Part shown: one piece after another, positions 2,819-51,798 of the stretch
Position numbering within the stretch: position 1 is the stretch's first letter
How the letters are laid out: each line of letters starts with the position of its first letter
Program-made: the position numbers and the translations under genes
Origin: Promethearchaeum sp.
GTDB lineage: Archaea; Asgardarchaeota; Lokiarchaeia; Sigyniarchaeales; Promethearchaeaceae
DNA: 64,000 nucleotides
Direction of reading: 5' to 3'
NCBI GenBank assembly: GCA_030612265.1
Contig: JAUWOE010000001.1
Coordinates: 1 to 64,000, forward strand
The notes under the pieces: model-generated
What the model saw: only the letters and a program-made list of their open reading frames with translations
Told to the model about the DNA's origin: nothing
Database searches by the model: none

Positions 2819-3616
2819 ATGTTAAACGAGATTTTCATAATTCAAGAAGGGTCATCATTACTTCTATTAAGACATTCCTTTACAAAAAAAAAATATAAAA
2901 TAAACGGAAATTTATTTTCAGGTTTGATTTCGGCTCTCTCCATGTTTACATCAGAGCTGGAAATTGGAGATATTAAACATTTTCAAACTGGGGAATTAAG
3001 GGTGCTGATTACTACCTATAAAAATATTATATTTGTTGGATTGGTTGACGATGATCCACATAGTGGATTTATAGAGATTTCACTTAAAAGAATTAGAGAA
3101 GATTTCTTAAAAGAATATTCAGAAAAGATTACAAATTGGAGTGGTAAAATTTCAATATTTGAAGATTTTAGGGAAAAAATTGAAAAAATCGTCTATACAG
3201 AGTTTTCAAAGTATTTCATTGAAAAAGACTTTCCAAAAAATGTAATAAGTGTAGTAAGGAAATTTCAATCTAAATTTGAATCAAAATATCTTAAATTTAT
3301 TGGGAAAGAGACAGGAATTGCGCGAGCAGAAACCCAATCGTCATTTAAATCACTAAAGAAACAAATCCGAAAGGAACTTAGTTTATTTTCAATAAATAAT
3401 GTATCAAGTTCAAATGAACAAGAACTCCAAATAAACATTCCAATGTGCCCAATATGCCGTGGTATAAAAACTCCTGAATTTTCAAGTAAATTTCTCGAAG
3501 GATTTATTGAAGGGTATATCGAGAAAAGTTTCAATTTAGATTCAATTCAAGTAAGGGAAACGAAATGCATTGCTCATGGAGAAGAACATTGCAGATTTAT
3601 TGCTAATTTAAATTAA
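2819..3616 (+). CDS. Longin/roadblock-like N-terminus plus C-terminal V4R domain
   Basis: C-terminus CPICRGIKTPEFSSKFLEGFIEGYIEKSFNLDSIQVRETKCIAHGEEHCRF matches the V4R pattern; N-terminus MLNEIFIIQEGSSLLLLRHSF...LFSGLISALSMFTSEL resembles archaeal longin/roadblock-like domains. Confidence 0.6.
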   Translation: MLNEIFIIQEGSSLLLLRHSFTKKKYKINGNLFSGLISALSMFTSELEIGDIKHFQTGELRVLITTYKNIIFVGLVDDDPHSGFIEISLKRIREDFLKEYSEKITNWSGKISIFEDFREKIEKIVYTEFSKYFIEKDFPKNVISVVRKFQSKFESKYLKFIGKETGIARAETQSSFKSLKKQIRKELSLFSINNVSSSNEQELQINIPMCPICRGIKTPEFSSKFLEGFIEGYIEKSFNLDSIQVRETKCIAHGEEHCRFIANLN

Positions 3617-18259: not shown

Positions 18260-19843
18260 TTAGATCACTTTACTGCTTTGAAAAAGACCCTTTCCCAACA
18301 TTTTTAAAATTGACATTCCAGGTTTGTATTTGTTTCCAGAGAGGTATAATTGTTCCACTTTCAATTGAAGGAGATTTTTGGGATCCATAGCTAGAGGATT
18401 TTGATTAAGAATTACCATATCTGCAATTTTTCCCGACTCTAAACTACCTCGTTCTTTTTCATCAAAGCTGGTATATGCAATTTCATATGTATTCATTTTA
18501 AGCGCTTCTTGTATAGTTGTTGATTGTTCCGGATCATAAGGATGATTACATGCACCATATATCGCATTTATTGGGTCTGGATGAGTAACTGGTCCATCTG
18601 AACCTCCACTAAGATGAATTCCCAAGTCAATTATTTTTCGTAGTGGAGAATTCCCTTTTACGCGTTGAGGTCCCAAAATTTCTTCCAAATACTCAATTGG
18701 TTCTAAGGGACTAACCAAAAATCCTGGTTGAAGAGTAATACCAATTCCAAGTTTTGCACATTTTTTTAAATCATCGTCAGAAATTAAGCAAGAATGTATA
18801 ATTGTATGTCGGTGATCTTCTCTTGGAAATTCTTTAAGAGCTTCTTCTAATGCAATAACTGCTTGATGCGTTGCTGCATCACCAATTACATGCATTTGTA
18901 TCTGTAAACCTGCCGTATTTGCTTCTTTCACAAATTTCTTAACAACTTCGTCAGTGTAGACTAAAATTCCATTATTAGCCGGATCATTTGAATATGGCTC
19001 ATTTAACGCTGCATCACATGCTCCAAAGCAGCCATCTAATGCAACGGAGAAACAACCTCCAATTCTTGGTAATTTTCGTTTTAAAACCTTTTTAATATCC
19101 ATTGTTTGGAAATAAAGCCTTGTTTGGAATTTATTTTCCTTATTTCTTGCTTTTGCAACTAAACTAACCAAAGTTACATCCATATCCATAGGAAATCCAA
19201 TACCTTCAACAGGATGAATAATGCCTATTCCATTATCGGCAAGTAGATCATAACCTTTAATAATACTTTTTACAAGGGTTAATGTTGGAACAAGTGAAGT
19301 TGCATAATCCACGCCCGTATAATATGCTTCATGGAATAATTGACCTGTATCTTCATTAAATCCATGCGATTTTCGAACATTTTCAGGAAAAGATGCTAAC
19401 AATTTACTATTTACAACACAAGAATGACCATCATAACAAATAATTACAAGAGGTCTATCCGAACAATATTTATCAAGTTCATTTTTCGTTATTAATCTTT
19501 TTTCTTCAAGACTATGCTTCGAAATTCCGAATGAGAGAACTAATTTTGATTTTGGATTATTTTTCAGATAATTTGTGATCATATCACCGATGTCTGAGAA
19601 ATTCTTGGCTGAACGAACATCAAAAAATGATGCTGCAAATAAAGCCCAATTTGAGAAATGAATATGGCCATCTCCAAAAGATGGGATTAAGGATCTTTCA
19701 TTTAATTCTACAAGATGATGATTTGAATATTGGGAAGGCAGTTCATCTCCAACATATTCTATAATACCCTTATTTTCTACTAAGTAACTGAATACATTAT
19801 TGTTTTTATCGCAAGTTATGATTTTACCATGAAATATTTGCAT
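18260..19843 (-). CDS. Amidohydrolase family protein (YtcJ-like)
   Basis: SFGDGHIHFSNWALFAASFFD..., HTIIHSCLISDDDLKKCAKLGIGITLQP, GSDGPVTHPDP. Confidence 0.88.
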   Translation of the reverse strand: MQIFHGKIITCDKNNNVFSYLVENKGIIEYVGDELPSQYSNHHLVELNERSLIPSFGDGHIHFSNWALFAASFFDVRSAKNFSDIGDMITNYLKNNPKSKLVLSFGISKHSLEEKRLITKNELDKYCSDRPLVIICYDGHSCVVNSKLLASFPENVRKSHGFNEDTGQLFHEAYYTGVDYATSLVPTLTLVKSIIKGYDLLADNGIGIIHPVEGIGFPMDMDVTLVSLVAKARNKENKFQTRLYFQTMDIKKVLKRKLPRIGGCFSVALDGCFGACDAALNEPYSNDPANNGILVYTDEVVKKFVKEANTAGLQIQMHVIGDAATHQAVIALEEALKEFPREDHRHTIIHSCLISDDDLKKCAKLGIGITLQPGFLVSPLEPIEYLEEILGPQRVKGNSPLRKIIDLGIHLSGGSDGPVTHPDPINAIYGACNHPYDPEQSTTIQEALKMNTYEIAYTSFDEKERGSLESGKIADMVILNQNPLAMDPKNLLQLKVEQLYLSGNKYKPGMSILKMLGKGLFQSSKVI

Positions 19844-19867: not shown

Positions 19868-22800
19868 TTAAATTATTTGAAAATAGAGTACCATTAGAAT
19901 TGCTGTTACTATAAAATCAATAATTGCTCCTAATGAACTTATAAATCGCCAATAAATTGGAAGATTATAAAGTTCTTCGCTTCGTTTAACAACCCAAATT
20001 ACATATCCAAAGAATGCTAATAGAAATAATGTATAGATCCATGGGTCTGCTGGGATAAAGGCACTTCCTGCACCAACTAAACAAATCATGATTAAAGTTC
20101 GGTAAAGAATTTTTAATGCAAAATTTTTCGGTTTAGTATCTTCTTCCTTTTCTGGTGAAACTGGGTAGAACACAATCAAAAAGATTAATCCACTTAAAAA
20201 TGCATTTTCAAGAATATAAAAGCTTACAATTCCCAATATTAATCCCAATCCGCTAAATACAATTCTCTTATGTTTATAATAAAATGCAATAATTTTATTC
20301 CATATTAAAATAAAGAAATTCTTTATTTTGAGTAATAAACGCATTATCAATTTTCCTATTAATTTTATTAGAATAACTATTTTTTCAAGGAAAAATATGA
20401 GAGGAAACAAGAGAAGTCCAATAATGGTTGCTGGGATAAGTATTAATGGTTGATTGAAACCGATAATGCATATGAATATCTCAATGAATAAAACGAAATA
20501 TATAATTTGATTAATCTTTCGATTCTTGAATTTTATAAATAAAACTAAACCAATGATTAGAGATACGATTAATACTGGAATCATTATTTGCCCTAAAAAG
20601 ATATTAGGAGTTCCAGAGGAAGGGTCTATTGGTGTGGAAGATAAATCAATGTTTAAGACAATATAAAAAGCAATATCAACAGCACCTAAAACTATAGTAC
20701 TTAAGAAAAGTGATAAATCCAAAGGTTTTCTAACCTTATCAGGTATAAAATCAAGTTTTTTCTTATCAATAAGATTAAGAGTAAATGCAATTACTAAAAG
20801 TTCTGTTATTAATAATAACCTCATAAATATAATAGGTGTTGTTTCAGTAATTTCGATTGCAAGGTTGATTGGAATAAGTATTGCAGAGAGAAGTGATATT
20901 ATTTCAATATAACAAATTATTCCTAAGATATCCTGTATTTTGAAATATAATTTATTATCATTTTCTTTGAATAATAAATCATTCTCGTAAAACATCATTA
21001 CAGTTAAGATAATAATCCCAATAATTAAGCGAATGATTGTAAATTCCTCTAAATTATAAAATATAATTAAGGTGCTCAAACCTATTGAAAATAGGACCCA
21101 TGTAATTTTTCTAAGAATTTTTATAATCTTCTCAATTGGAGATAGAAATTTCAATCGATTTTCCAATTCAATAAAAATATGAAGAACCAGGATTGATATT
21201 ACAAGAGCAAACATCCATTCAAATATATTGAATAATAGTATATCAATCTGAACCATTATTGCTATAGAAATGATTAAATTAGAAATAAAAAGTAGTTTTC
21301 CAAGAATATCTTCTTTAACCAACTTCAAAATTTTAAATACATAAGGTAAGCTAACAAAAATTATAATTCCTATAGGATATAATTCTGTGTAATAACACCA
21401 TAAAGCACTAATATCCGCAATAAATAAAATTATTATCCCTAATGTTAAAGATGATGCAAGTTTCTCCTTCAAAATTTTTGTTTTCTTTAAATCAAACCAG
21501 TAAATGCAAACAAAAGCTAATATTGTAAAACTAAATATATCAAATAAGGCAATCTCTAAATAATTTCCACCAATGACAATGAAAATATAGTGTAAATAAC
21601 TTGTTAAAGTAATAGGTAGGGAAATATATAAGCATATTCCATTAATATTCCATGAAATATCAAGGATTCTCTTAAATTTCTTATTTTCAACCCATAAATT
21701 GTTTGATTTAATATATTGGAATATTTTTACTAAGCCGATTGTTATTAAAAGAATGATTGATTCCGCTTTAATTAAAATCTGAACAAAAATATTTATAAAT
21801 ATATAATTTTCTATAATTGCATTTTCAAATATATAAGCCCATCCATGGGTAATTGAAATGCTTAAAATTAAGATTTCAATAAATAACCAAATTGAGTATA
21901 TTTGTTTTGCTTGTATTTGATCACGATGCCCGAATAATAATAAAAATGCAGATTTTTTATCCTTAGAAATGGATTTATTATTTTGATCTTTGATAAAATC
22001 TATTGATCCGAATCCATCATCTGAATTTTCCATTATTCTTAGATAAGGATTATATTTATGAAAGATTTCTAATTTAACTAAACTTCTATTTGCTAGAAAA
22101 TAATATATTAAAGTATTAAATATCCCAAATAAGAAACTAAACCATATAATCGAGGTAATTGTAGATTCAATCCCTCCTACAAACCAGTAAGAAAAAGAGT
22201 ATAAGTATATTGTTAAACAGAAAGAAATTAATGTCCAATAGCTATAGACTAAAGATGTTAAATTAATTTTATTTGTATTTAAGATACATAAAATCGATAA
22301 AAATATAGCAACGCTCATCAATGGGCTGATATTTGAAAATACTCTTAAATATTCTTCAATCATTCCGGAGATAGAAAGGGATAGTGCAATTGAAATTAAA
22401 AATTGCCATTTTCTTGAAATTAAATTTTTCCTAATAAACAAATAAAGAATAAACAAATTAATTGAAAAATTAAGAAGAAGTGATCCAAATTCTGCTATTT
22501 GCAAGCTCGAATATATATTTAATACATACCATAGATGATAAAACAAAGATATATTGAAAAATATTACAGATAAGAGTTTAAATACAATTCCTAATTCTGG
22601 TTTTCCAATAATTAAATAATTTTTCTCTTTCCAAACTTCATTTTTTTGCAAATATTTATTTAAATGATAAAACATGAATGAAAAAACGATCGGTATAATA
22701 GAAATCCACAAGAAAAATCTTTCTACTCTTGTAAAATCAATATAAAATAGCAATAGATCTGTAAATATATAATTCCAAAATTGAGCGATAAAAATAGAGA

Positions 22801-25800
22801 CAATAAAGGTTTCAAATATCATCCAGATTGCAAAAATCTTGTGTGCGATAGCAGAAGAATTCCAGATAGGATTTATTATGGATGATTTTATATTATTTTC
22901 CTTTACATAATTTTGTGGTTGATTGGCAAATAGATAGAATATTAAAGACAATTGCAAACCGCAAATAAACAAAATAGTAATTATATAATTAATAGTCGAC
23001 ATATTGTATAGGAGTGGAATGAATTCCATCAAAAACGTAGAAATTGAGAAAACTAACAAAGTCCAATAAATATAAGTTATTTTTGCACGTTTTATATTGA
23101 AAGAGTTTAATATTGAAACAACAAAAAGGAATGCAGCAATATTAAGAATAAAATGTTTCATTAAATAGATCCTTGAGATTTCTTCACAGTAAAGTGCAAT
23201 TATAATAGTCATTATCAAGAAAATAACTTTGGTTGCCTTGATTTTGATTATTTTAAATTTCATAAAAAGATAGATTATTGCAATATTAATTGTGATATTT
23301 AGTAAGAGTAAATCAAACTCAAGATTAATAATAGAATCAGAAATATCAGACGTTTTCCAAATAAAACTGAATATGGCTGTATTTATTAACAATACATTGA
23401 TAATTTTGAGAACTTCAGGATATATCTTATTACCTGCTTTTTGATTGAGATATATTGTACCAAAGAATAAAATACACCAAATTAATAAGGAGACCTCCCA
23501 TAAGTTAAAGGGTGCACCTGACATTGATATTGATATAGATATAGATAAATAGATACCAATTGTTAAACAAACAGAAAAGGCTAAATAACTTATCCAATCA
23601 AATTGAGAACGAATTTTACTAGTTACTAATTTTACTAGTTTTCGATCAATTCCATAAAATTCAATAAATAGAATTGAAAACAGAATTGCTAATCTATAAA
23701 AAGTTATTATAGCACCAAATTGCTCGGAAGTTTCAATTAAATTATCAACTGGAATTTTAATAGCACAAAATATCGAAGTTGTAAGATATATTGTAAATAT
23801 AAGTATGAAGCGGAAAATTGGAATTATTTTTTGAATTATTGCATACTTGTTAAAGAGTTCATTACGTCTGATAAAGTGTGTTGTTAATAGATTTTGTAAA
23901 GCAAAAGTGTTTAAGAAAATTAATATATTGGAATATATTTCTTGTGGGAAATACATATTTATTAATAATATTAAAGTTGTAGAGAATAACGCAGATGAAA
24001 TTACCCAAATAATAGAAGAAATTTCAAAATTCTTAGTTTTATTTTTAATTAACCCAAATTTTGTTTTACTGCTAAAATAGATGTAAGCTAATTCCAAACT
24101 AAAAAGAACATCCAAAAACAATAGGGGTTGATTCGAAGATATAAATAGAGATGTTGGAATTAGTAACTCCATTAATATCATTGAGATACCACCAATAAGT
24201 AAAACAAAAACTGGACCTAAATAAGATCTAATTATTGGGAAGTAAATCAAAGTGGCCACTATTACTAAAACACCTGTAGAAGCCCATCCTCCTATATTAA
24301 AAATCGTTAACCCCAATTCAAATAATGATAAACCGAAGAAAATTGCCATCCCAAACCAGATTAATTCAAATAATATCTTAGGCAAATATTTCCTTGCCTG
24401 AAACGAAAGAGTTGTTCCAAAAGCAAACGCAATTGCAACAAATATTCCAAAAGTAGTAAAATCTATGTCCCCCTCTATTAAACTGAATGATCTTGCTAGT
24501 AAAATTGCTAGATTTATTATAACTATAAGAGCATGACCAACTTTTATTAAATAATCACGTAAATTAAAATATTTTCCAGTAAGTAAAACAAAAGAAATTA
24601 CAATGAAAGTAATATTAACAGAAATAGTGGGATCGATGAAAATTAGAATGACAAATGAATATAACAACGCGAATATACTTCCTAAAATGGTGAAATATCC
24701 TAAAACAATGATTAATGAATGAGCAATTTTAGATTTCTTTTTTATATTCGGGAAATAACCTAAAGCTAAAATATAAAATCCTCCGATTAAAGTCCCTATT
24801 GGTATCTCCCAATTAGGTTCAAAATCAAAGAAATTAATTACAAAAGTAATATTTGTTGCTGCAATTAATGGCCAAATAAGACTAAGATAGGCCCAATGCC
24901 TGTAATAATAAAATATAGGGACAAATAATATTAATCCTATTAAAAATACAAATGGGATTTGTAAAATAAGATTTTCAGGAAATAGGTTTGCTGCACCCCA
25001 AGTTGTAAATACTAGTAACTCTAACCAGAAAATGTAAATAATCTTATTTAGATTTTTCATCAATCTAGTTAAAATTACAGGCAAATACATCAATGTACAT
25101 ATAATAATAGAAAGAATGATCGATCCATTAACAGAAACATTCAGAACTGTTAGAGCTAATGAAACATGATCAATTCCTGATATTAGATGCGAAATCATTA
25201 TAAAATTAATAATTGGTGCAATAATCCAAGCATATACTCCCACGGACCAGATTTTTGTAAATGCGCGTTTGTAGATTCCGATACCAACATAAAACGTTAA
25301 GAGAGCTATATCAAATCCAATTGGTACGGCGATTTCCCAATAAGTTTCAGCAAAAATAACCGGTTCCATCAAAATAAGATATGTAAATACTCCAGCTAAT
25401 AGGGAAGCGCATGTAAAGAAAGCAAGAGATAATTCTTTTCTTATTTTCGCATCTAAAAATTCTAATATGAAAATAAATAAGAACCCGCATATCGCTCCAG
25501 CTAAAGATAGAGCCAAAAATTCAGAATAAAAGTAATTTTCGAATAAATAATAACGTCCAAGAGTGTAAAAGAAGAAAAATGTACCACCTAAAATTAAAAT
25601 ATTCAGAAAATTTTCTTTCTTAAAAATTATTAGTTTTTTCTTTAAAAATAGTAAAATTAGGACTACTATTGCCATAATTAGTGGTGAAATAAGCCCCATT
25701 ATTTCATTGCTTTTAATAAATAAATATGCGTAATTGAAAATCCATGAAATTATTACACTATAACCTAATATCGCCTTTATAATTGATTTTGACCATTTAG

Positions 25801-28800
25801 AATCTTTTAAAAACACAATCCATTGCCAGGTTAAACCGACTGCACAAGCCACAAAAATGGACAGTAATGCAAATTCTGTTTGAGATAAATAATTGTATAA
25901 TATATCATAGATAAAATAGGCAAATGCCCAAACTTTGAAAGAATTAAATGTCAGATTTTTATAAGATCGATGAGTAAAAACACTAAAAAGAATACTGCTA
26001 ATTAATAAAATCCAAGAGATAGGGATCTTATAGATTTCAACGAAGATATAAGAATATATTCCCAACATAAGGAGATTTTGAGAATATTTTATTAGGTTAT
26101 TAAGAGGAAAATGTCTTGTAGCCAATCTGTTTATTAAAATCGCAGCAGTTAAGCTGAGAATTATTTGAAACTCATTAATAATAAAGATTGAATCATAGAT
26201 TAAGTAATTTAATCCTAAAGTTATTAAAGTTTGAATGTAATAAATCAAAAACTTGTTAGAATGAGGTTGATATATTGTAATCACTGAAATAATCAAGGAG
26301 CAAATTAACAAAATTTGGAGAATGGAAAATCCTTCTGAAAAAAATATTAAGTTGATGCCAAGATATAAATTCAGACCTAATGTAGCAAAAATAAAACTTA
26401 TTTCAATAAAAATCCATTTATTAGAAATAAATTTTGCAAATCGGTTCATAATAATAGTTGGGGCATATTTTGGGATCATTTTGGTAGAGGAAATGTCTTC
26501 ATTTTTTACTGAAGGTTCATCTAACTCATGTGCATATTTTTTCTTTGTTTTTGATTTAGTTAAAGGTCTTCTATTAATCTCAATCGAATTTTGAGATGAT
26601 TGAATTCTTCTATTTGCCCAATCAACAAAATAAAATATTCCAAATAGAAATGGCAATTGAACAAGAATAAATAGGAAAATTTGATTATCAAAGGATTTTA
26701 ATAAAAATTCTGAAATGGATACTGTTATTCCTATTAAATTGTATAAAAATACGCTGAAAAATGATAAGATTACTGTTTTTTGATCTGTTAAAAGATTTAT
26801 TGTAAAATAATCTATAACCAATAAAGCGGTTATAAATAATGAAGAGATTAATAGAGAAATCCCCCCAAATAGAACAAATTCTTTAGAAATTAAATAGATT
26901 AAGATTGCAATATTAGTAAATAAAATTATTTCGTTCTTTTGATAAAGATTCCGAGCAAAGCCTTTAGAAAAAGTATTTTTACTAAAAAGGAAGATACTAA
27001 AAAACAATACAAGAATAGGAATTAGAAAAAGTCCAAAGTAGGCATATAATGGAGTTGTTCCTGAAGCAAATATAATTTGATTGATTGATATTGCTAAGAA
27101 AATTGAACTACAAAAGATAAAAATTGAAATTATTTCATAAAGAAATTTTTTGATTGTTCCAGTTTTATAATCTGGAACCAAATAAATCAATCCAGAAACA
27201 ATAAGAAACACAATAAAAATTGAAAAGTTTGGAATAAAACCAAAAATTTCATTACATGTAAAGTAAATCACAGATGAAATTGAAATTAGGTTAATGTAAA
27301 TCAATAGTTCCTTAAATACTTGTAAAATTTTATGTAGTTTCGGTAAAATTTCATTTACAATTTTAATGGCATAGAATAAAACAAAAGTATCAACAAAAAT
27401 ACTAATTGTAACAACTAACGGATTGAAATCTAAAAAGATATTAATTGATATAAGCAAACCTAGAGCAGAAATTACCCACAGGATTAGAATTTGAGCCTTT
27501 AAAATTAGTTTCAGATGTGAAACCTCAAAATAAAATTTTTTAATATCTATTATCTTAAGAATAAAGAATAATCCGAATAGTGGCCAAGATATAGTAAATA
27601 AAATATTATATATCCTAAAATAACCTGGAGTTATAACATATATTAGCATTGCAGATACAATTATTGCATACAAATCATAATATAATCCGGTATTAAAGAT
27701 GAAATGAATTTTTTTATGAGATTTATCTTTGAGATATTTTCCTTTTTTTAATTGATTGATAGTGAATAAAATTGAAGCAAGAATTGATAAAAGGCCGACA
27801 AGAATAGTAATTAAAGTATAATCTTGAATTAAGTTTATTTCCTTTGCTAAATATTCCATAAATATGGAGATATCAACTAAAATAGCAAAAATTGGCATAA
27901 ATATTGCATTAATGAAGTGTTTTATTCTAGTTGGGATATATTTTAAAAGTATTGGAATGATATAGAGAAATATCCAAAAAGTTATGAAGGATATTATTAT
28001 TGATTCTGTAATTATCAGTCCAATAAAATAGGAACTGATGGAATAGATTAAAGTTAATAATGAAAGTAAGTTTAAAATTAGGTTTATATCAGTACATATA
28101 TTTATTTTTCTACTATCTGGAAAAGCGTTTTGAAATTCTCTAAAGCTAAATATAAGAACAAATGTTATCAAAAAGAATGCTATTGAAAATCCTATTAATT
28201 CAAAATTGAAGAAAATTATCGGAGAGATTGAAATAATTATAACTCCTATAATTCTGGTAAAGTTTTTTTGAATTAAAAGTATAAAAGTAAACTTATGATG
28301 TTCTTCTAAATATTTTAATCTCAAAAAGATTTTATATATAAGAAAGAGCCCTAATATCATACCTCCAAGGATTAGATACATGATAGGAGTGGAAAGTTGA
28401 ATCCATTCTGTATTTAAATTATTTATGATCCATTCAAATTCAGAATACATAATGAAAGAAAAACCAACTAATATTTCCAATTGAATTATTCCAAAATTTA
28501 TATAATTCCAAGAGAGTCTATTTATAATTTTTCTCTGTTCTAAATAAAAAGCAATTAATAGCAATGTTGCCAGAGTAATTATAACGGTTCCAAGGGAGAA
28601 TAAGATAGAATAATCAACAATAAGTTCAATCCTCAAATAACTTTCAAATAAAGAATGAACTGAGATAATTCCAGAAGTAGATATTGCGAGTAATAATAAG
28701 ACATCAATTAAAACAATGATTTTATTAGGAAGGTATTTTTTTACAATTTTTGATACGTGAATAATAATTCCTGTAAAGATGGGTGTCAAAATTAAGGAGA

Positions 28801-31666
28801 GTGGGAAAAAAAAGGGTACAAAAGAAAATATATTGAAGAATGTATAAAAAACTCCGACCAAAATAACTAAATTGAATAAATGTATAAAATCTATTATTTT
28901 TTCAATTTTTTCTTGTTGTGCAGGATAAATGAAAATATATTGTTTAATATTCCTATATGTTATAATCCCTAAAACCAATAATCCTGAAAAGATAGAGAAA
29001 GCTAAAGTCTCATCAAATAAATCCTGAATTAAGAAAATTAAGAATGAAATCAAAATAGCAAATCCTAATTCCCATGTAATACTCATCATGTATTTCCATG
29101 TTAGATAGATTTCACGGTATTTGTTATTAAGATTTAAATTGCAATTGTATTTAAATATAAATGATAATATGATTAAGTTAATTGATATAATCAATAAGAA
29201 AACATATGATGGTATATAAGTGTTAAAAATTATTAATCCAGAAGCCATTAACCAAAAAATTAGTTGCATTACCATCTTTGAAAGTTCATAATTTCTTCCC
29301 TTAGCATAATTTCCTAAGGATAATTGTTTTAAGGATAAAATCGAGAAGAACGAAATTATAAAACCTGAAATTAAAATCCAATTTAGAATGCCAACTTCAA
29401 GATTTGGATCTAAATAATTTAACAACAAGAAATTAATCGATGATATTAAAAAAATCCCAATTAAAAATAAAATGGATACATTTAAGAGATTTAACACATT
29501 TTTCTCATGATAAGTGCGGTTTAATATTAATTTTATCGCAGGAACCAGATTAATATAAAGAAGAAGTATTAATAAAGCAATAGTAAACGATAATGTAAAA
29601 TTAATGCCTAAGAATTCTATTCCTATGAAGAAAAATAATGCTAAAGATACGATAGCGTTTACAATGAAAAGGATTCTTTTTACTTGTAATTTTGATTTTT
29701 TTAGAGGGTTTTGGATCTCTTCCCTAAATTCATAGATAGAATCATAAATGTAAACACTGAAATAAGTAGCGAACATTAAGGTTAAAAAAAATCCAGAAAT
29801 TGATTGAAAAATAATCAAAATGCTCATACAACCTAATAAACCAATCAAACTGCGATTGAAAATTTTATTAAATTTTAAAACATAAGATGAAAGAACTTTA
29901 AAATTCTCATGCAATTTAATTATTATATTATAACCTACTAAGGATATAAGACCTGAAACTCCAATGTTCCATATACTCGCTATTCCGTTTGTGGACTTAA
30001 TAATAAATGTTGAATTTAAGGCGGTTTCTCCAATTTTCTGATATATACCTAAAATGAATCCTGAAGAACTTGAAAGTAAACCAGTTGGGGAAAATAATGA
30101 AATTAGTAAATTACTATTAACAAAAGATTCAATATAATAAACCGAAGTTCCAATTAACCCACCTGCAATTAATTGAAAAATTCCAAAGAAACTAATAAAT
30201 AGAAAAACTATAACACATTGTGAAAAAACTTTAGTTTCGGAACCCTTAAAGTTTATAGAATAAAGACGATAAAGCGAACTAAGAGAACTAAGAGAAATAA
30301 AGAAAATATAATTAAAAATCTTGGAATCAGTAATGAGCAAATTATTTACGGTTGTACTCGCTGCAAAGTAAATCCCAATTTCAAAGAAAATAATAATATA
30401 TAGCATATTTTGAATAAATATTTGATATTTCTTTGATATGGCTTTAATTTCATACAAAATAATCGGGATAGTAATTGTTAAAACTGAGAAGAGAAGTATT
30501 TGGAAATAAATTGAGAGAGAAACTATTAGAAAAGATAAAACTGCATACAATGCTAATAGCTGAATAGTTATATAAATCCTAGAAATTAATTGGAATGAGA
30601 GATGATAGTGTCTTTCTATAAGATTTTCTACCAGAAAAGCCATACCTATCACCAAAAACGTGAAAGGAGAAAAACCTTCTACTAGGATATAGATGATTGC
30701 TGAAATATTTATAGCAATGGTTATAATGTCATTAATAATAAATCCAATAAACCATTTTACGCGAATCTGAAAATCCCTAAATAGATGCTTACTGGATTGT
30801 TGAAATATGATAAAAAATATTTTAATTGTTAATAAAGCCGTAATTACAATATAAAGCGCCAAATTTAAGTTAGATTGAAATGAGCATATCCAAAATTGAA
30901 CTAGACTTTGAATAATTAATATGTATCCAATGATTTTTAGATTTAGAATTAATTTAAATTCAGATAAGCGAGATCTTAATATACTTAACTTAAAAATTAG
31001 TTCTTTAATTACAAAATACAAGATGGCTCCGAAAACATTAGTTATAATTAAGATAATTACTGAATTGGATAAAATTAAGCAGATAATATCAAAAATTACT
31101 TTAATTACTAAAGGTTTAAAAATTATTTTTTGAAGAGTTTGATTATTGTGTTTTATTACAACTTCAGGAACTTTTCCGGGATTTTCTTCAGATTTGCTTA
31201 TTGGAAACACTACTTTGAAAAATCTACAGAAAAACAATGATTCTAAAGGCATTATTACTAAGATAAAATACTGGAATGCGAATGCGAAACTAGAATAATC
31301 CATCACCAAGGAAAAAAGATAAAAAATCAAGGATGTTAGAATTGTCGGCCCATATATTATTAAACTACCTATTCCAAGTTCTTTTTTATAACTCATTGGG
31401 ATGATTTCATACCAAAACTTTTTTTTCCGTGTTTTTAAGAAGAGTAAATAAAAAATTGGAAGTGTAAAAGTGATCCCAGCTAAAAAAGTCCCAAGAGTAA
31501 ATTCACCCATCAAAAACGTTTCTTCCACAAATAATAGAGTAATCCCTGCCAAAACTACTCCAACAATACCGGGAAGGGCAATCATGAAAATTAAAATAAA
31601 AGCAAAATCTGTAAGCTGATTGGTGATTTTCAGAAATTTTTGATCTTCTTGAGTAGTATTATTCAT
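19868..31666 (-). CDS. Giant polytopic membrane protein (3932 aa) with internal repeats
   Basis: Uninterrupted 11.8 kb ORF from ATG; nearly all of the sequence is hydrophobic segments separated by short K/R/E/N loops; internal repeats readable by eye. Confidence 0.85.
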   Translation of the reverse strand: MNNTTQEDQKFLKITNQLTDFAFILIFMIALPGIVGVVLAGITLLFVEETFLMGEFTLGTFLAGITFTLPIFYLLFLKTRKKKFWYEIIPMSYKKELGIGSLIIYGPTILTSLIFYLFSLVMDYSSFAFAFQYFILVIMPLESLFFCRFFKVVFPISKSEENPGKVPEVVIKHNNQTLQKIIFKPLVIKVIFDIICLILSNSVIILIITNVFGAILYFVIKELIFKLSILRSRLSEFKLILNLKIIGYILIIQSLVQFWICSFQSNLNLALYIVITALLTIKIFFIIFQQSSKHLFRDFQIRVKWFIGFIINDIITIAINISAIIYILVEGFSPFTFLVIGMAFLVENLIERHYHLSFQLISRIYITIQLLALYAVLSFLIVSLSIYFQILLFSVLTITIPIILYEIKAISKKYQIFIQNMLYIIIFFEIGIYFAASTTVNNLLITDSKIFNYIFFISLSSLSSLYRLYSINFKGSETKVFSQCVIVFLFISFFGIFQLIAGGLIGTSVYYIESFVNSNLLISLFSPTGLLSSSSGFILGIYQKIGETALNSTFIIKSTNGIASIWNIGVSGLISLVGYNIIIKLHENFKVLSSYVLKFNKIFNRSLIGLLGCMSILIIFQSISGFFLTLMFATYFSVYIYDSIYEFREEIQNPLKKSKLQVKRILFIVNAIVSLALFFFIGIEFLGINFTLSFTIALLILLLYINLVPAIKLILNRTYHEKNVLNLLNVSILFLIGIFLISSINFLLLNYLDPNLEVGILNWILISGFIISFFSILSLKQLSLGNYAKGRNYELSKMVMQLIFWLMASGLIIFNTYIPSYVFLLIISINLIILSFIFKYNCNLNLNNKYREIYLTWKYMMSITWELGFAILISFLIFLIQDLFDETLAFSIFSGLLVLGIITYRNIKQYIFIYPAQQEKIEKIIDFIHLFNLVILVGVFYTFFNIFSFVPFFFPLSLILTPIFTGIIIHVSKIVKKYLPNKIIVLIDVLLLLAISTSGIISVHSLFESYLRIELIVDYSILFSLGTVIITLATLLLIAFYLEQRKIINRLSWNYINFGIIQLEILVGFSFIMYSEFEWIINNLNTEWIQLSTPIMYLILGGMILGLFLIYKIFLRLKYLEEHHKFTFILLIQKNFTRIIGVIIISISPIIFFNFELIGFSIAFFLITFVLIFSFREFQNAFPDSRKINICTDINLILNLLSLLTLIYSISSYFIGLIITESIIISFITFWIFLYIIPILLKYIPTRIKHFINAIFMPIFAILVDISIFMEYLAKEINLIQDYTLITILVGLLSILASILFTINQLKKGKYLKDKSHKKIHFIFNTGLYYDLYAIIVSAMLIYVITPGYFRIYNILFTISWPLFGLFFILKIIDIKKFYFEVSHLKLILKAQILILWVISALGLLISINIFLDFNPLVVTISIFVDTFVLFYAIKIVNEILPKLHKILQVFKELLIYINLISISSVIYFTCNEIFGFIPNFSIFIVFLIVSGLIYLVPDYKTGTIKKFLYEIISIFIFCSSIFLAISINQIIFASGTTPLYAYFGLFLIPILVLFFSIFLFSKNTFSKGFARNLYQKNEIILFTNIAILIYLISKEFVLFGGISLLISSLFITALLVIDYFTINLLTDQKTVILSFFSVFLYNLIGITVSISEFLLKSFDNQIFLFILVQLPFLFGIFYFVDWANRRIQSSQNSIEINRRPLTKSKTKKKYAHELDEPSVKNEDISSTKMIPKYAPTIIMNRFAKFISNKWIFIEISFIFATLGLNLYLGINLIFFSEGFSILQILLICSLIISVITIYQPHSNKFLIYYIQTLITLGLNYLIYDSIFIINEFQIILSLTAAILINRLATRHFPLNNLIKYSQNLLMLGIYSYIFVEIYKIPISWILLISSILFSVFTHRSYKNLTFNSFKVWAFAYFIYDILYNYLSQTEFALLSIFVACAVGLTWQWIVFLKDSKWSKSIIKAILGYSVIISWIFNYAYLFIKSNEIMGLISPLIMAIVVLILLFLKKKLIIFKKENFLNILILGGTFFFFYTLGRYYLFENYFYSEFLALSLAGAICGFLFIFILEFLDAKIRKELSLAFFTCASLLAGVFTYLILMEPVIFAETYWEIAVPIGFDIALLTFYVGIGIYKRAFTKIWSVGVYAWIIAPIINFIMISHLISGIDHVSLALTVLNVSVNGSIILSIIICTLMYLPVILTRLMKNLNKIIYIFWLELLVFTTWGAANLFPENLILQIPFVFLIGLILFVPIFYYYRHWAYLSLIWPLIAATNITFVINFFDFEPNWEIPIGTLIGGFYILALGYFPNIKKKSKIAHSLIIVLGYFTILGSIFALLYSFVILIFIDPTISVNITFIVISFVLLTGKYFNLRDYLIKVGHALIVIINLAILLARSFSLIEGDIDFTTFGIFVAIAFAFGTTLSFQARKYLPKILFELIWFGMAIFFGLSLFELGLTIFNIGGWASTGVLVIVATLIYFPIIRSYLGPVFVLLIGGISMILMELLIPTSLFISSNQPLLFLDVLFSLELAYIYFSSKTKFGLIKNKTKNFEISSIIWVISSALFSTTLILLINMYFPQEIYSNILIFLNTFALQNLLTTHFIRRNELFNKYAIIQKIIPIFRFILIFTIYLTTSIFCAIKIPVDNLIETSEQFGAIITFYRLAILFSILFIEFYGIDRKLVKLVTSKIRSQFDWISYLAFSVCLTIGIYLSISISISMSGAPFNLWEVSLLIWCILFFGTIYLNQKAGNKIYPEVLKIINVLLINTAIFSFIWKTSDISDSIINLEFDLLLLNITINIAIIYLFMKFKIIKIKATKVIFLIMTIIIALYCEEISRIYLMKHFILNIAAFLFVVSILNSFNIKRAKITYIYWTLLVFSISTFLMEFIPLLYNMSTINYIITILFICGLQLSLIFYLFANQPQNYVKENNIKSSIINPIWNSSAIAHKIFAIWMIFETFIVSIFIAQFWNYIFTDLLLFYIDFTRVERFFLWISIIPIVFSFMFYHLNKYLQKNEVWKEKNYLIIGKPELGIVFKLLSVIFFNISLFYHLWYVLNIYSSLQIAEFGSLLLNFSINLFILYLFIRKNLISRKWQFLISIALSLSISGMIEEYLRVFSNISPLMSVAIFLSILCILNTNKINLTSLVYSYWTLISFCLTIYLYSFSYWFVGGIESTITSIIWFSFLFGIFNTLIYYFLANRSLVKLEIFHKYNPYLRIMENSDDGFGSIDFIKDQNNKSISKDKKSAFLLLFGHRDQIQAKQIYSIWLFIEILILSISITHGWAYIFENAIIENYIFINIFVQILIKAESIILLITIGLVKIFQYIKSNNLWVENKKFKRILDISWNINGICLYISLPITLTSYLHYIFIVIGGNYLEIALFDIFSFTILAFVCIYWFDLKKTKILKEKLASSLTLGIIILFIADISALWCYYTELYPIGIIIFVSLPYVFKILKLVKEDILGKLLFISNLIISIAIMVQIDILLFNIFEWMFALVISILVLHIFIELENRLKFLSPIEKIIKILRKITWVLFSIGLSTLIIFYNLEEFTIIRLIIGIIILTVMMFYENDLLFKENDNKLYFKIQDILGIICYIEIISLLSAILIPINLAIEITETTPIIFMRLLLITELLVIAFTLNLIDKKKLDFIPDKVRKPLDLSLFLSTIVLGAVDIAFYIVLNIDLSSTPIDPSSGTPNIFLGQIMIPVLIVSLIIGLVLFIKFKNRKINQIIYFVLFIEIFICIIGFNQPLILIPATIIGLLLFPLIFFLEKIVILIKLIGKLIMRLLLKIKNFFILIWNKIIAFYYKHKRIVFSGLGLILGIVSFYILENAFLSGLIFLIVFYPVSPEKEEDTKPKNFALKILYRTLIMICLVGAGSAFIPADPWIYTLFLLAFFGYVIWVVKRSEELYNLPIYWRFISSLGAIIDFIVTAILMVLYFQII
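21691..22610 (-). repeat. Protein-level internal repeat copy B of the giant membrane protein (~307 aa, approximate bounds)
   Basis: LLLNFSINLFILYLFIRKNLI...EEYLRVFSNISPLMSVAIFLSILCILNTNKINLTSLVYSYWTLISFCLTIYL...IYSIWLFIEILILSISITHGWAYIF; aligns to copy A. Confidence 0.65.
22611..23440 (-). repeat. Protein-level internal repeat copy A of the giant membrane protein (~277 aa, approximate bounds)
   Basis: LLLNITINIAIIYLFMKFKII...EEISRIYLMKHFILNIAAFLFVVSILNSFNIKRAKITYIYWTLLVFSISTFL...IFAIWMIFETFIVSIFIAQFWNYIF. Confidence 0.65.
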
Positions 31667-31801: not shown

Positions 31802-31963
31802 TTAATTTCGTTGAAAAAAATATCCATCTATAACTTGGTCCGAATTTGAAATAACAGATATCAATTCCCATCCTTGATTTCTAAAAGTTTCATGCATTTT
31901 TGATATCTGATCTTCGGAAGTCCTTGTTTTAATGTAATGACACATTACCCTTGGATTTTCCAT
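31802..31963 (-). CDS. 53-aa protein, DUF4177-like
   Basis: MENPRVMCHYIKTRTSEDQISKMHETFRNQGWELISVISNSDQVIDGYFFQRN*; ATG at 31963 lies 1 nt past the SPFH gene stop (31965-31967). Too short for the ORF track. Confidence 0.6.
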   Translation of the reverse strand: MENPRVMCHYIKTRTSEDQISKMHETFRNQGWELISVISNSDQVIDGYFFQRN

Positions 31964-31964
31964 C

Positions 31965-33188
31965 TTATTTCTTTACCTTAATTCCTTTCATTTTAATCAT
32001 TTTAATGGGGGACTCTATCATTACATCTTGAAGGTTCTCGATTTCAGAATCTTCAAAATCTCCTTTTCCTTCCATTTCTTCATTGAATTTTTCTTTGGAT
32101 TTTTTAGTCAAATCTTTAATTTGAGAATTAAATTCAGGAAGAACTTGCATTAGAGGAAGGATACTTCCCAGAATGCTGTTGAAACTCTTATTTCCTTCAC
32201 CCATTACAATCATTTTATCAGGTGAAATGTTCTTATATATCTCTGGCATTTTCTCGATTAATTTCAAGGAAATGAAGTTTTGATCACAAGAATTAATCGC
32301 ATCTACTTGTTTCTGGAATCCCTCTGCTTCGGCAGTCATTTTTAAGCGAATTCCAGTAGCTTCAGCTTCTTTTCCTGCAAGTGTTTTCATTTTAATCGCT
32401 TTTGCATCAGCTTCTGCTCTGATGAGTGTTGCTTTCTTGTAGGCTTCAGCTTCAATTTCTACCCGGATTAACTCTTTCTGTTGAATTTGAATCGCCATTT
32501 CTTTCTGGGCTAATTCTGCTTGCCGACTGACATCAATTTCTCTTAATCTGTAAAGTTCTTTCGCATCAGCATTTGCTAATCGAGCGCGTTGTTGTTCTTG
32601 AATTTTTTTAACTGCTTCCATGTTATCTTTTAGATCCTTGTCTAAAACCTGAACTTCAATAATTTCCAGAGACTCTATTACTATCCCCCAATCTTTTGTT
32701 AAGTTTAACAACTGGTCTGATATCGTTTTGATTATCTCAGTTCGATCGCAAATAATGGTTTCAACCGTTAAACTGGCACATGTGGTACGAATTATTGCCT
32801 CAGTTGCTGTGCTGAGCACTTTTTCGACATAATCAGGTGATCTTGCATCCCACACGACAGCATTAAACGATATTTCTGGCTCTGAAACACGCCAATAGAG
32901 AATAGCGCTTATTTTTACATCTTGGAATTCCCGGGAGAGAATTTTATCTGAAGAATTCAGCAAAGTTTTCCTCGTGGTTGTAGGTATTACAATTATCTCA
33001 TCGATCAAGGGTAATTTGATTACATGACCACCTCGACCCGCCGATTTGACTTTTCCTCCTCTTAAAAAAATTACATATTCATTCGTTTTAAACTTTCGAT
33101 ATCGATTCGCAAAGAATAATGCTATTAAAACAATAGTCACTACAATTATGATGACTATTCCTACGATTCCTAAACTAAATTCTGCCAT
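31965..33188 (-). CDS. SPFH/Band 7 domain protein (stomatin/flotillin-like)
   Basis: N-terminal TM, EYVIFLRGGKVKSAGRGGHVIKLPLIDEIIVIP, ILYWRVSEPEISFNAVV, coiled-coil Ala/Glu-rich region. Confidence 0.9.
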   Translation of the reverse strand: MAEFSLGIVGIVIIIVVTIVLIALFFANRYRKFKTNEYVIFLRGGKVKSAGRGGHVIKLPLIDEIIVIPTTTRKTLLNSSDKILSREFQDVKISAILYWRVSEPEISFNAVVWDARSPDYVEKVLSTATEAIIRTTCASLTVETIICDRTEIIKTISDQLLNLTKDWGIVIESLEIIEVQVLDKDLKDNMEAVKKIQEQQRARLANADAKELYRLREIDVSRQAELAQKEMAIQIQQKELIRVEIEAEAYKKATLIRAEADAKAIKMKTLAGKEAEATGIRLKMTAEAEGFQKQVDAINSCDQNFISLKLIEKMPEIYKNISPDKMIVMGEGNKSFNSILGSILPLMQVLPEFNSQIKDLTKKSKEKFNEEMEGKGDFEDSEIENLQDVMIESPIKMIKMKGIKVKK

Positions 33189-33229: not shown

Positions 33230-34123
33230 TTATGTTAATATTTTTTTATTTTTTAATGTAGAAATTTTTATTTTTTTATTTTGTAGCTTTAGATGAAGCA
33301 ATTTTACGCTTGCTGGATTGTCATCAACGAAATACATTCCATCTTTATATTCACAAATGTAAACTGTTGTTTGAGAGTGAAACCAGGATAACGGATGAAG
33401 TGATTTCACACCAATTTGTTGAACAGCACCAGCAGATTTGACAGATACCACCCCTCCATCAACAGAAACGGCTATTTTGACAACCGCTTCCCGTCCGAGT
33501 AAATTTTTACCCGTTCTAACACGATACGTACTATTCTTTGATATTTTTCTCCAAAATTTACTAATTAATTTAACTAGTGCTATTGAAACTAGTAAGACTA
33601 TTATTAACCATAGCCATTTCCACTGTAAAGAAAAAAAATCGTATGTAGAAGTGCCAATTGCGCCAAACCATAGAAGATATAATGAAAAGATCAAAGATAA
33701 TGGAGTTTGATTTTCAAAACTTATAAAATCACTATCACCTGTAGAAAGAGCACTTTCAATAGAAGTCCCAATATCAAAATCTTCTTCAACTTCAATGTTA
33801 GAATCAATGTCAGTTTCAGCATCGATCTCTGTATCTGCTTCAAATTCCATATCTGAATCAAGATCTATATCAATTTCCGCATCAACATCAATATCAATTT
33901 CCGCATCAACATTAATATCAATATCCGCATCAACATCAATATCAATTTCTCCACTATCTATATCTGAATCGATATCTCCGTCAAAATCTTCAGAAATATC
34001 ATTATCTCCAGTCTCTTGATTTGAAAAGTTTGAAGCGGCCATTATGGAAAGTATTAATGTTAGAATAAATCCTGAAATCAAAGCACCTACACATAATGAA
34101 AATATAATTTCATGCCAGATCAT
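33230..34123 (-). CDS. NfeD-like membrane protein with long Asp-rich low-complexity insert
   Basis: N-terminal TM, D/I/V/E repeat, two further TMs, OB-like C-terminus (KNLLGREAVVKIAVSVDGGVVSVKSAGAVQQIGVKS); next to SPFH gene. Confidence 0.7.
   Translation of the reverse strand: MIWHEIIFSLCVGALISGFILTLILSIMAASNFSNQETGDNDISEDFDGDIDSDIDSGEIDIDVDADIDINVDAEIDIDVDAEIDIDLDSDMEFEADTEIDAETDIDSNIEVEEDFDIGTSIESALSTGDSDFISFENQTPLSLIFSLYLLWFGAIGTSTYDFFSLQWKWLWLIIVLLVSIALVKLISKFWRKISKNSTYRVRTGKNLLGREAVVKIAVSVDGGVVSVKSAGAVQQIGVKSLHPLSWFHSQTTVYICEYKDGMYFVDDNPASVKLLHLKLQNKKIKISTLKNKKILT
33868..33939. repeat. Three tandem 24-bp units (tatcaatttccgcatcaacatcaa)
   Basis: Units 33868-33891, 33892-33915, 33916-33939, two substitutions seen; encodes IDVDAEID-like octapeptides on minus strand. 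Confidence 0.85.
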
Positions 34124-43003: not shown

Positions 43004-46000
43004 ATGAATGAAATGGTTCAATCGATACTACCCAATAAGGATGATAAAAAAATTTCAGTTCTAGATATTTTCCCCAGACATATTAAAAACTCTCGAGGAG
43101 ATCTCAAACCCTTTGATCCAGACAAATTAGTAGTAAATTTGAATAAAGAAACAGGCTTAGATTGGAATGAATGTATTAAGGTTGTTAAAGATTCATTAAA
43201 AAAAATTACAATTTTAGGCTTAAAAACAATTCAAACTTCAATGATCAGAGAGATCATGTGTTTAGAATTGATGGCAAGGGGATATATTAAAGAAAGAAAT
43301 ATATATGCCAAATTAATTCTCTCAAGCGTTCTTAAATTTAAATTAGGCGAATCTTTCATAGAAATTTATGAAGGAAAACAACCAGAATGGGGGCCTCTTG
43401 GATATATTACATATAAACGAACCTATGCTCGTTTGATTGAGGATGAAGAACGCACTGAAGAATTTTATGAAACAATTCGTAGAGTGGTTGAAGGCGTGTA
43501 TTCTATTCAAAAAGAACATTGCTTTAAACTAAGTTTACCTTGGGAACCAGAAAAAGCTCAGAAATCCGCTCAGACAATGTTTGAAAAAATATGGAATTTC
43601 AAATTTATACCTCCTGGGCGGGGACTTTGGATGATGGGCACAGAATTTATAGATAAACACGGCAGTATGGCTCTAAATAATTGCGGTTTCTGCTCTACTG
43701 AAGATATTTTGATAAAGAAGACCAAACCCTTTGAATGGCTCATGGACGCCTTGATGTTGGGAGTTGGTGTAGGATTCGATACTAAGGGAGCAGGAAAGCA
43801 AATAATTAAAAAACCAAAAGATGAAATATTCGTTTTTGAACTTCCTGATTCAAGAGAAGGTTGGGTTCAAGCACTTCGATACTTATTACTGGCATATTTC
43901 GATGGAGATCCAATGCCAGCTTATGATTTTTCAAAAATTCGTCCTGCTGGTGCATTAATTCGAGGATTTGGAGGTGTTGCATCAGGTCCAGGACCTTTAC
44001 AGGAAATGTTGGATAATCAGAAGGAATTACTTGATAAAAGGATTGGTTCAACATTAACTTCAGTGGATATAGTCGATATGATGAATCTTATTGGAAAATG
44101 CGTTGTAGCTGGAAATGTCCGCAGGAGTGCTCAAATTGCATTAGGTTCCGCAGATGATGAGGAATATATTAACTGCAAACAAGATAAACAGGCACTATAT
44201 CATCACAGATGGGCGAGTAATAATAGTATTATTGGGAAAAGGGGCATGGATTATTCTAAAATTGTGGATAATATTGCAAAAAATGGAGAACCTGGAATTA
44301 TTTATCTTGAAAACGCAAGAAATTATAGCAGAATGGGATTTGAACCAGACTATAAAGATAAAAAGGCAGTTGGGGTAAATCCATGCGTTACGGGAAATAC
44401 TCTTATTGCAGTTGCTGATGGAAGAAATGCGGTTTCAATTGAACAATTAGCAAAAGAAGGTAAGGATGTCCCAGTTTATTGTAAAGATGAGAAAGGAACT
44501 ACCAAAATAAAAATGATGAGAAATCCGAGAATAACTGGGTATGATGAAAAAATTTATGAAATCAAATTAGATGATGGAAGCAAGATTAAATGCACAGGGA
44601 ATCATGAATTTCTTCTAAGGGATTTGACTCAAAAAAAAGCAATCGATTTAAAACCAAATGATTCTCTAATGATAATGGCAAAATGGGAAACAAATTGGGA
44701 TGAAATAATGAATGTTAAGGCCAGTAATAAAAAAACATCATATTGGATGATAAATGCTGGTAATAAAAACCACTTCGAGCATTCATTTATATTTGAAAAT
44801 CTAAATGGTATAAAAATCCATTCTGGATATGTTATTCATCATAAAGATCATAATGGACTCAATAATAACTTAAAAAATTTGGAAGTAATGAACAAAAAAG
44901 ACCATCAACAGCTTCATGATATTTCCGGAGATAAGAATCCTATGAGAAAATGGTATCCAAATGCTTCTAATGAAGAAAAACTAAGATATCATGAAAAAAT
45001 GTCAAAATCTACTTCAGGAGAGAAAAATCCACGATACTCAGGAATTACTAATGATGAAATTTATTTAGAAATGGTAAAATATATAAAAAACAAAAATCTG
45101 CCATTAACAGTCCCTACATGGAAGAAATATGCAATTAAAAAAAATTTAATCTATAATTTTAACTTCTTTAGGGGTAAACTAGTTAATTTAATTAAAAAGG
45201 CAAATATCGAATGTGGCTTTGAACATCTTGATAATCCCGCTCAAATGAGGGAATATAAAAGATATATAAAACTTCTTTCCGAAAGTGATCTTGAAATCAA
45301 TTTTGATAAAGGAATTTGGGTAATACGACATTGTGAAGTTTGTAAAAAGGAATTCCGTGTGAAATATCAATATAGGGAGCAAGCTTATTGCTCAAAGAAA
45401 TGTTCCAATAAAATTGCAGCTAAAATTGCAGGAAAAGCTACTAAAGAACAAGCAAAGCAAAGGCATAAAGAGGTTTACAAAAAGATTACTAATTTGTTTA
45501 TTAAATATATATCTGATTTTCAACTTGTGCCTTCTAAAATTCAATTTTTAAAATTTCTGAATAAAAATGATATAAATGATTTAAGATCAGCAGGATTATC
45601 CAGCAGTTATCAAAAATTTTTGGATGATTTCACTAAGAAAATCAAGGTCCAACAAATTGAATTAAAAAAATTAAATAACTTGGCTTATCAAAAAGCAATG
45701 GCATCAACTTTACAAGATCATGGAATTGTTTATAATCATAAAATTGTTTCTGTTAAAGAAATTGGAAAATCTATTGTTTATAATGGAACTGTTGATGATT
45801 ATCATAATTTTGGTATCATCTTAAATGAAAAAAAAACTTATTCAGGAAAATTAAAACTTGATATGATATTCACAGCGAATTGCGGAGAACAATCTCTAGA
45901 AAGCTTTGAGTTATGTTGTCTTGTAGAGACTTTCCCTTCTAAGCACGATTCCTATGATGAATTTGAAGAAACGCTCAAATACGCCTATCTCTATGCAAAA

Positions 46001-51687: not shown

Positions 51688-51798
51688 TAATTTAATTTTA
51701 GCCTTTGCTAAACTCCAAGGATTTTCGTCATAATGCTCTAGTGTATCCCTAAATAACTCTAATTGCCCAAAGAGATCTTTAATTTCTATAAAATCTTC

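What the first reader, a model, noticed from the sequence alone, without database searches (positions are those of the whole stretch)
19868..31666. A single 3932-aa, almost wholly hydrophobic membrane ORF
One unbroken 11.8 kb frame encodes hydrophobic segments about every 30-40 residues, suggesting on the order of 100 TM helices (rough eye estimate). I recognise no soluble enzymatic domain. That size and topology is exceptional for an archaeon. It sits directly downstream of an NfeD-like/SPFH membrane operon on the same strand, so a role in membrane organisation or transport is possible but speculative.
Basis: partly seen in the sequence, partly recalled or inferred. Interest (0 to 1): 0.9.

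Follow-up and report, generated by a model that had tools for sequence, protein, structure and literature searches.

The report
Giant ~116-helix Asgard membrane protein family
One archaeal gene encodes a single protein predicted to cross the membrane about 116 times; it is real, conserved in the cultured Asgard archaeon MK-D1 and most of its order, resembles nothing of known structure or family, and its job is still unknown.

Summary
ORF 19868-31666 lies on the minus strand and encodes 3932 aa (GRAVY 1.01) with 104-121 predicted transmembrane helices and no Pfam, NCBIfam or PDB match. It is not an assembly artefact. Intact frames of 3940 aa (MK-D1, complete genome), 3938 aa, 4296 aa and 4908 aa exist in relatives, and dN/dS is about 0.22 along the whole length (0.12-0.15 in the core).

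Profile searches find the family in 66 of 82 genomes of the window's order. Orthologues there are 2500-4900 aa, usually one copy. No confident core hit was found in 150 other Asgard genomes.

Anatomy: an N-terminal 8-TM module (a separate ORF in some genera), a conserved core of about 25 TM with an invariant Trp/Pro/Asn/Gly-Ser signature, tandem ~300-aa 8-TM repeats varying in copy number (2 here, 5 in a probable Lokiarchaeum ossiferum), and a conserved E...WRF C-terminus.

AlphaFold models of core and N-terminus (pLDDT 83 and 85) match no known fold. Giant (2.0-2.3 kaa) proteins in another Asgard family are possible remote relatives. The SPFH/NfeD-like neighbours are conserved only in the window's genus. 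Best guess: a modular in-membrane helical scaffold; function unproven.

The parts
19868..31666 (-). Giant polytopic membrane protein, 3932 aa, about 116 predicted TM helices
   Evidence: orthologues
30767..31666 (-). N-terminal module, residues 1 to about 300, 8 TM with a beta-hairpin between TM4 and TM5 (in the model of a relative); a separate ORF of about 312 aa in many relatives
   Evidence: Gene splits; AF2 of relative L077 shows 8 helices then a low-confidence linker at 311-319; module search
23405..25678 (-). Conserved core, residues 1997-2754, 24-25 TM, lowest dN/dS
   Evidence: A1/A2 alignments; AF2 pLDDT 82.6; dN/dS
24737..25339 (-). Most conserved stretch, residues 2110-2310: W2140 W2147 P2151 N2154 (D2166) G2181 S2182 P2196 W2214 W2223 F2229 P2250 W2258 W2265 F2275 P2306
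   Evidence: Invariant in 16 of 16 (D2166 included) and 52 of 52 (D2166 not)
22703..23437 (-). Repeat module copy 1, residues about 2744-2988 (overlaps the end of the core)
   Evidence: Repeat HMM
21815..22660 (-). Repeat module copy 2, residues about 3003-3284; 5 copies in G007, 3 in G009, 2 in the window's genus
19871..20869 (-). Conserved C-terminal module, residues 3600-3932, with E3897 and R3907 invariant and W3906 nearly so (E...WRF)
31802..31963 (-). Small 53-aa ORF between the SPFH gene and the giant; a similar ORF found in one congener (G001) only
31965..33188 (-). SPFH/Band_7 protein, 407 aa, upstream neighbour (genus-level synteny only)
   Evidence: Pfam Band_7 5.9e-25
33230..34123 (-). 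NfeD-like membrane protein, 297 aa (name by eye; no Pfam match)
18260..19843 (-). Amidohydrolase, 527 aa, 24 nt downstream of the giant, conserved position in the genus
   Evidence: Amidohydro_3 8.9e-57

Best explanation
The gene makes one giant polytopic protein that works as a modular, membrane-embedded helical scaffold. SHOWN: an 8-TM N-terminal module, a conserved core of about 25 TM, a block of tandem ~300-aa 8-TM repeats whose copy number differs between species, and a conserved C-terminal module; clear positive-inside alternation in the core; purifying selection along the whole chain. INFERRED: the conserved core is the functional unit (its invariant Trp/Pro/Asn/Gly-Ser residues cluster on a few consecutive helices and on loops predicted to be extracellular), while the repeats build an in-membrane arm of lineage-dependent length. 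My preferred mechanism is that the arm senses or imposes membrane shape or tension and/or corrals lipids and proteins around the core, as Piezo blades do mechanically, without being related to Piezo. The cellular process it serves is not known.
For: Modular anatomy with repeat amplification (5 units in G007, two of them 52% identical; profile self-comparison above a reversed-profile null). Separability of the N-terminal module (split ORFs; linker at the split site in the AF2 model of a relative). Core conservation. K/R counts in alternate loops of the core region of 19:1 and 20:0, and 22:5 just after it. No soluble domain. No similarity to any solved transporter, channel or enzyme fold by sequence or structure. 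Length changes by whole modules are tolerated, which fits an arm better than a compact transporter.
Against: No functional data. Foldseek's best PDB hits for the core are mostly soluble alpha-solenoids but none is significant (E >= 0.14). The invariant Asn/Ser and aromatics could equally be a binding or translocation site. Conserved neighbours in other families (GH4 glycosidase, class I/II aminotransferase, Liv-type ABC importer) hint at nutrient uptake rather than shape sensing.
Confidence: 0.3

Rival explanations
1. A giant permease or flippase: the conserved core of about 25 TM is a translocation unit for a sugar, peptide or lipid-linked glycan, and the remaining helices are accessory.
For: Invariant Trp/Asn/Ser near the predicted outer face of the core. 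In families outside the window's, the gene is often preceded by a GH4 glycosidase and an aminotransferase, and followed by a Liv-type ABC importer in 14 genomes.
Against: No similarity to any transporter in Pfam, NCBIfam, PDB sequence or Foldseek. Neighbours differ between families, and in the window's genus they are SPFH and amidohydrolase. No charged residue is invariant across all 52 core sequences.
Confidence: 0.25
2. A component of SPFH/NfeD-type membrane microdomains: the giant is a client or floor of a flotillin-like cage.
For: Same-strand SPFH and NfeD-like genes directly upstream in all four sampled genomes of the genus.
Against: The linkage is confined to the genus; the SPFH orthologue is unlinked in G007 and G009 and undetected in several genomes that have the giant. 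A gap of 298 nt containing a small ORF separates the SPFH gene from the giant.
Confidence: 0.12
3. A mechanosensitive or other ion channel of a new kind, functionally like Piezo (blade plus core).
For: Repeat-built arm plus conserved core; helix number comparable to a Piezo trimer (PMC9256749).
Against: No sequence or fold match to Piezo or any channel; no recognisable pore signature; oligomeric state unknown.
Confidence: 0.13
4. Assembly artefact, pseudogene-like drift or non-expressed ORF.
For: The window contig is from a fragmented MAG (317 contigs, 80% complete). No transcript or peptide data were available.
Against: Same frame in the complete MK-D1 chromosome and other one-contig genomes; dN/dS 0.22 overall; 62 genomes with the core.
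Confidence: 0.02

Closest known systems
Piezo mechanosensitive channels
   Same: Very many TM helices in one chain arranged partly as repeated multi-TM units; extension of a core by an in-membrane arm (idea only)
   Different: Piezo has 38 TM per chain (9 x 4-TM units plus pore), a pore module, cap and beam; no sequence or fold match here, 8-TM repeat units, about 116-140 TM per chain in the window's family
SPFH/flotillin plus NfeD operons
   Same: Gene neighbourhood in the window's genus (Promethearchaeum/Prometheoarchaeum)
   Different: The giant is neither an SPFH nor an NfeD protein, and the linkage is not conserved outside the genus
Giant membrane proteins of Asgard family f8 (L117, L118, L131-L137; 2033-2295 aa)
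   Same: Giant size, 50-67 TM by Kyte-Doolittle, weakly similar N- and C-termini in profile comparison
   Different: Core signature not detected; similarity only modestly above a reversed-profile null, so homology is suggested, not proven

Membership tests
Piezo | Detectable sequence similarity to Pfam or PDB Piezo entries | tested here: not met
   No Pfam or PDB match for P0001 or for the core profile A2
Piezo | Fold similarity of the TM units | tested here: inconclusive
   No Piezo among the listed Foldseek PDB matches of the core or N-terminal model; best E 0.14 and 1.8. The repeat block itself was not modelled.
Piezo | Force-gated cation conductance | not testable with these tools
   Needs electrophysiology
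Known secondary or primary transporter families | Family HMM match (Pfam, NCBIfam) | tested here: not met
   None for the window protein or several homologues
Known secondary or primary transporter families | Transporter fold in the predicted structure | tested here: not met
   Isolated transporter entries (e.g. LacY) appear only at E of 2 or more with low TM-scores; only the core and the N-terminus were modelled
SPFH/flotillin microdomain system | Operon linkage across the family | tested here: not met
   Linked only in the genus
Order-wide giant family defined here | Core signature plus N-terminal module plus E...WRF C-terminus in one frame or two adjacent frames | tested here: met
Same superfamily as the f8 giants | Significant colinear profile similarity | tested here: inconclusive
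   N-end score 42-43 and C-end score about 34, against 18-25 (two-sequence profile) or up to 33 (nine-sequence profile) in reversed controls

The most novel reading that the evidence does not exclude
A previously undescribed family of single-chain giant membrane proteins (about 80-140 TM helices, extended by tandem duplication of an 8-TM module), present in most of the order that contains the cultured Asgard archaeon MK-D1 and probably with distant giant counterparts in other Asgards, forming a new kind of intramembrane scaffold in the archaea closest to eukaryotes.
Probability: 0.4. Interest if true: 0.9.

Novelty: categorically new. Interest (0 to 1): 0.76.

Why it matters
A single polypeptide with over 100 predicted membrane spans exceeds Piezo, which has 38 per chain and was called the record holder in 2022. 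It raises direct questions about insertion, folding and quality control at the Asgard ribosome-translocon. It is kept under selection in MK-D1 and is apparently present in L. ossiferum, the cultured Asgard archaea known for elaborate membrane protrusions, so localisation and pull-down are feasible. If it shapes or organises membrane, it would be a candidate archaeal membrane-architecture protein absent from current family libraries.

Tried and rejected
Assembly or frameshift artefact: rejected. AT-rich composition as the cause of hydrophobicity: rejected, orthologues at 50-56% G+C are equally hydrophobic. Known family: Pfam, NCBIfam, PDB sequence, Foldseek PDB and Foldseek viral all empty at significance. 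BLAST self-comparison found no internal repeats, whereas profile methods did. Alignment-based search of GTDB contigs failed for lack of conserved short blocks; a single-protein scan gave MK-D1 and one MAG. Zinc-ribbon genes next to the giant (two order lineages and the f8 giants): in the order not clearly above a background of about 4% of ORFs, so not used. Literature searches for a prior description of such a protein found none, but only open-access text was searched.

Full report
WHAT IS THERE. The ORF at 19868-31666 reads on the minus strand from ATG to one stop, 3932 aa. I, L and F make up 44% of residues and GRAVY is 1.01; 104 Kyte-Doolittle segments and 104-121 Viterbi segments are predicted. 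The method was checked on window neighbours: 12 helices at penalties 3-5 for two MFS carriers, 0-1 for soluble enzymes at penalty 5. In the conserved core it gives 25, against 24 long helices in the AlphaFold2 model. The longest loops (53-69 aa) leave no room for a catalytic domain. Pfam, NCBIfam and PDB sequence searches are empty.

IT IS REAL. The complete MK-D1 chromosome (NZ_CP042905.1; named) carries a 3940-aa orthologue at 73% identity; two further congeners have a 3938-aa copy and a contig-split copy; G009 (one contig) has 4296 aa; G007 (one contig of 6,035,313 bp) has 4908 aa plus a 3146-aa paralogue. G007 is probably Ca. Lokiarchaeum ossiferum, an inference from the genome size given in PMC9834061. 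dN/dS against congeners is 0.22 overall and 0.15 and 0.125 for residues 2001-2600, so the whole chain is under purifying selection. Orthologues at 50-56% G+C are just as hydrophobic.

DISTRIBUTION. A profile of the core finds 62 of 82 genomes in the window's order; the other 150 genomes of the phylum have no convincing hit (the best outside E value was 0.003 on a 351-aa frame). Adding N-terminal and C-terminal profiles raises this to 66 of 82. It is usually single-copy. Genus g13 lacks it (0 of 5, including a 99%-complete genome), so it is not universal. NCBI taxonomy places MK-D1 in Promethearchaeota, Promethearchaeales.

ANATOMY. (a) N-terminal module, residues 1 to about 300: in many genera it is a separate ORF of about 312 aa whose end overlaps, or nearly abuts, the start of the long ORF. 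AlphaFold2 of an orthologue (L077) shows 8 helices with a beta-hairpin between TM4 and TM5, and a low-confidence linker at 311-319, the natural split site (mean pLDDT 85.3). (b) Core, residues 1997-2754: 15 columns invariant in 52 sequences, mostly W, P and F, plus N2154, G2181 and S2182; D2166 is invariant in the 16-sequence set only. Loops of the core alternate sharply in K+R (19:1, 20:0), and by that rule the GID...GS and NLFP loops face outward (inference). (c) Repeats: a ~300-aa, 8-TM module occurs 5 times in G007 (copies 3 and 4 are 52% identical), 3 times in G009, twice in the window protein and once in the G007 paralogue; this accounts for much of the length difference between these proteins. 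Weaker ~240-aa repeats occur around residues 755-1337. Profile self-comparison scores (53 in G000, 62 in the relative G025) exceed a reversed-profile null (38 and 48). (d) C-terminus: E3897 and R3907 invariant in 51 sequences, W3906 in 96%.

NEIGHBOURHOOD. In the window's genus: NfeD-like, SPFH (Pfam Band_7 5.9e-25), a 53-aa ORF (window and one congener), the giant, then an amidohydrolase 24 nt downstream. Elsewhere the SPFH orthologue is unlinked or undetected. In other families of the order the giant follows a GH4 glycosidase and a class I/II aminotransferase and, in 14 genomes, precedes a Liv-type ABC importer. In G007 it follows histidine-biosynthesis genes (ORFs of L028 listed; identified by eye). 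These contexts are lineage-bound and do not fix a function.

FOLD. Core (pLDDT 82.6, pTM 0.61) and N-terminus (85.3, 0.66) are all-helical apart from short hairpins. Foldseek against PDB (core, N-terminus) and viral models (core) gives no significant hit (best E 0.14, 1.8 and 0.50). The top PDB hits of the core are soluble alpha-solenoids, which may reflect a repetitive hairpin order but is not evidence of homology.

POSSIBLE REMOTE RELATIVES. The N-terminal profile weakly hit two frames of 2033 and 2295 aa in another Asgard family, f8. A profile of these found related sequences in 16 genomes, with 9 full-length members of 2033-2295 aa and 50-67 Kyte-Doolittle TM. Profile comparison with the window family matches the N-terminal end (score 42-43) and the C-terminal end (about 34); reversed controls reach 18-25 with the two-sequence profile and 33 with the nine-sequence one. 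Homology is suggested but unproven.

MECHANISM AND NOVELTY. I favour a modular in-membrane scaffold: conserved core plus repeat-built arm, perhaps sensing or setting membrane curvature or tension (confidence 0.3). Giant permease, SPFH-associated microdomain protein and new channel remain open. Piezo, 38 TM per chain and 114 per trimer, was described as having the most transmembrane passes (PMC9256749); this family exceeds that per chain by prediction. No earlier description was found in the open-access text searched, but closed literature, asCOGs and AFDB were not searchable here. 'Categorically new' therefore refers to the absence of any match in the libraries tested.

Noticed in passing
window 43004-46792 (+): The 1262-aa ribonucleotide reductase-like ORF seems to contain an inserted intein with an endonuclease-like segment (blocks ...VNPC/VTGNTLIAVADG... 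to ...FTANCGEQ).
   Followed up: no
L117 5952-12050 (+), L118 3392-10276 (-), L131-L137: A second set of giant (2033-2295 aa, 50-67 TM) membrane proteins in another Asgard family, next to a divergently oriented zinc-ribbon gene in at least 7 of 9 loci.
   Followed up: partly
L079, L082, L084, L091, L094, L096, L101, L102, L107, L108, L109, L112: Natural split of the giant into a ~312-aa multi-TM ORF and a 2000-2750-aa ORF, overlapping or nearly abutting (possible translational coupling).
   Followed up: partly
L042 126-3248 (-) and L029 6327-15764 (+): Paralogues of the giant: a 1041-aa frame in G001 that begins with the N-terminal module but is much shorter, and a 3146-aa second copy in G007.
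   Followed up: no
window 31802-31963 (-): 53-aa ORF (MENPRVMCHYIKTRTSEDQISKMHETFRNQGWELISV...) between the SPFH gene and the giant, reminiscent by eye of short DUF4177-type proteins; found intact only in G000 and G001 of the four congeners checked.
   Followed up: partly
window 48907-53205 (-): Two adjacent ORFs (926 and 468 aa) look like parts of one superfamily-1 helicase/nuclease gene interrupted by a stop or frameshift.
   Followed up: no
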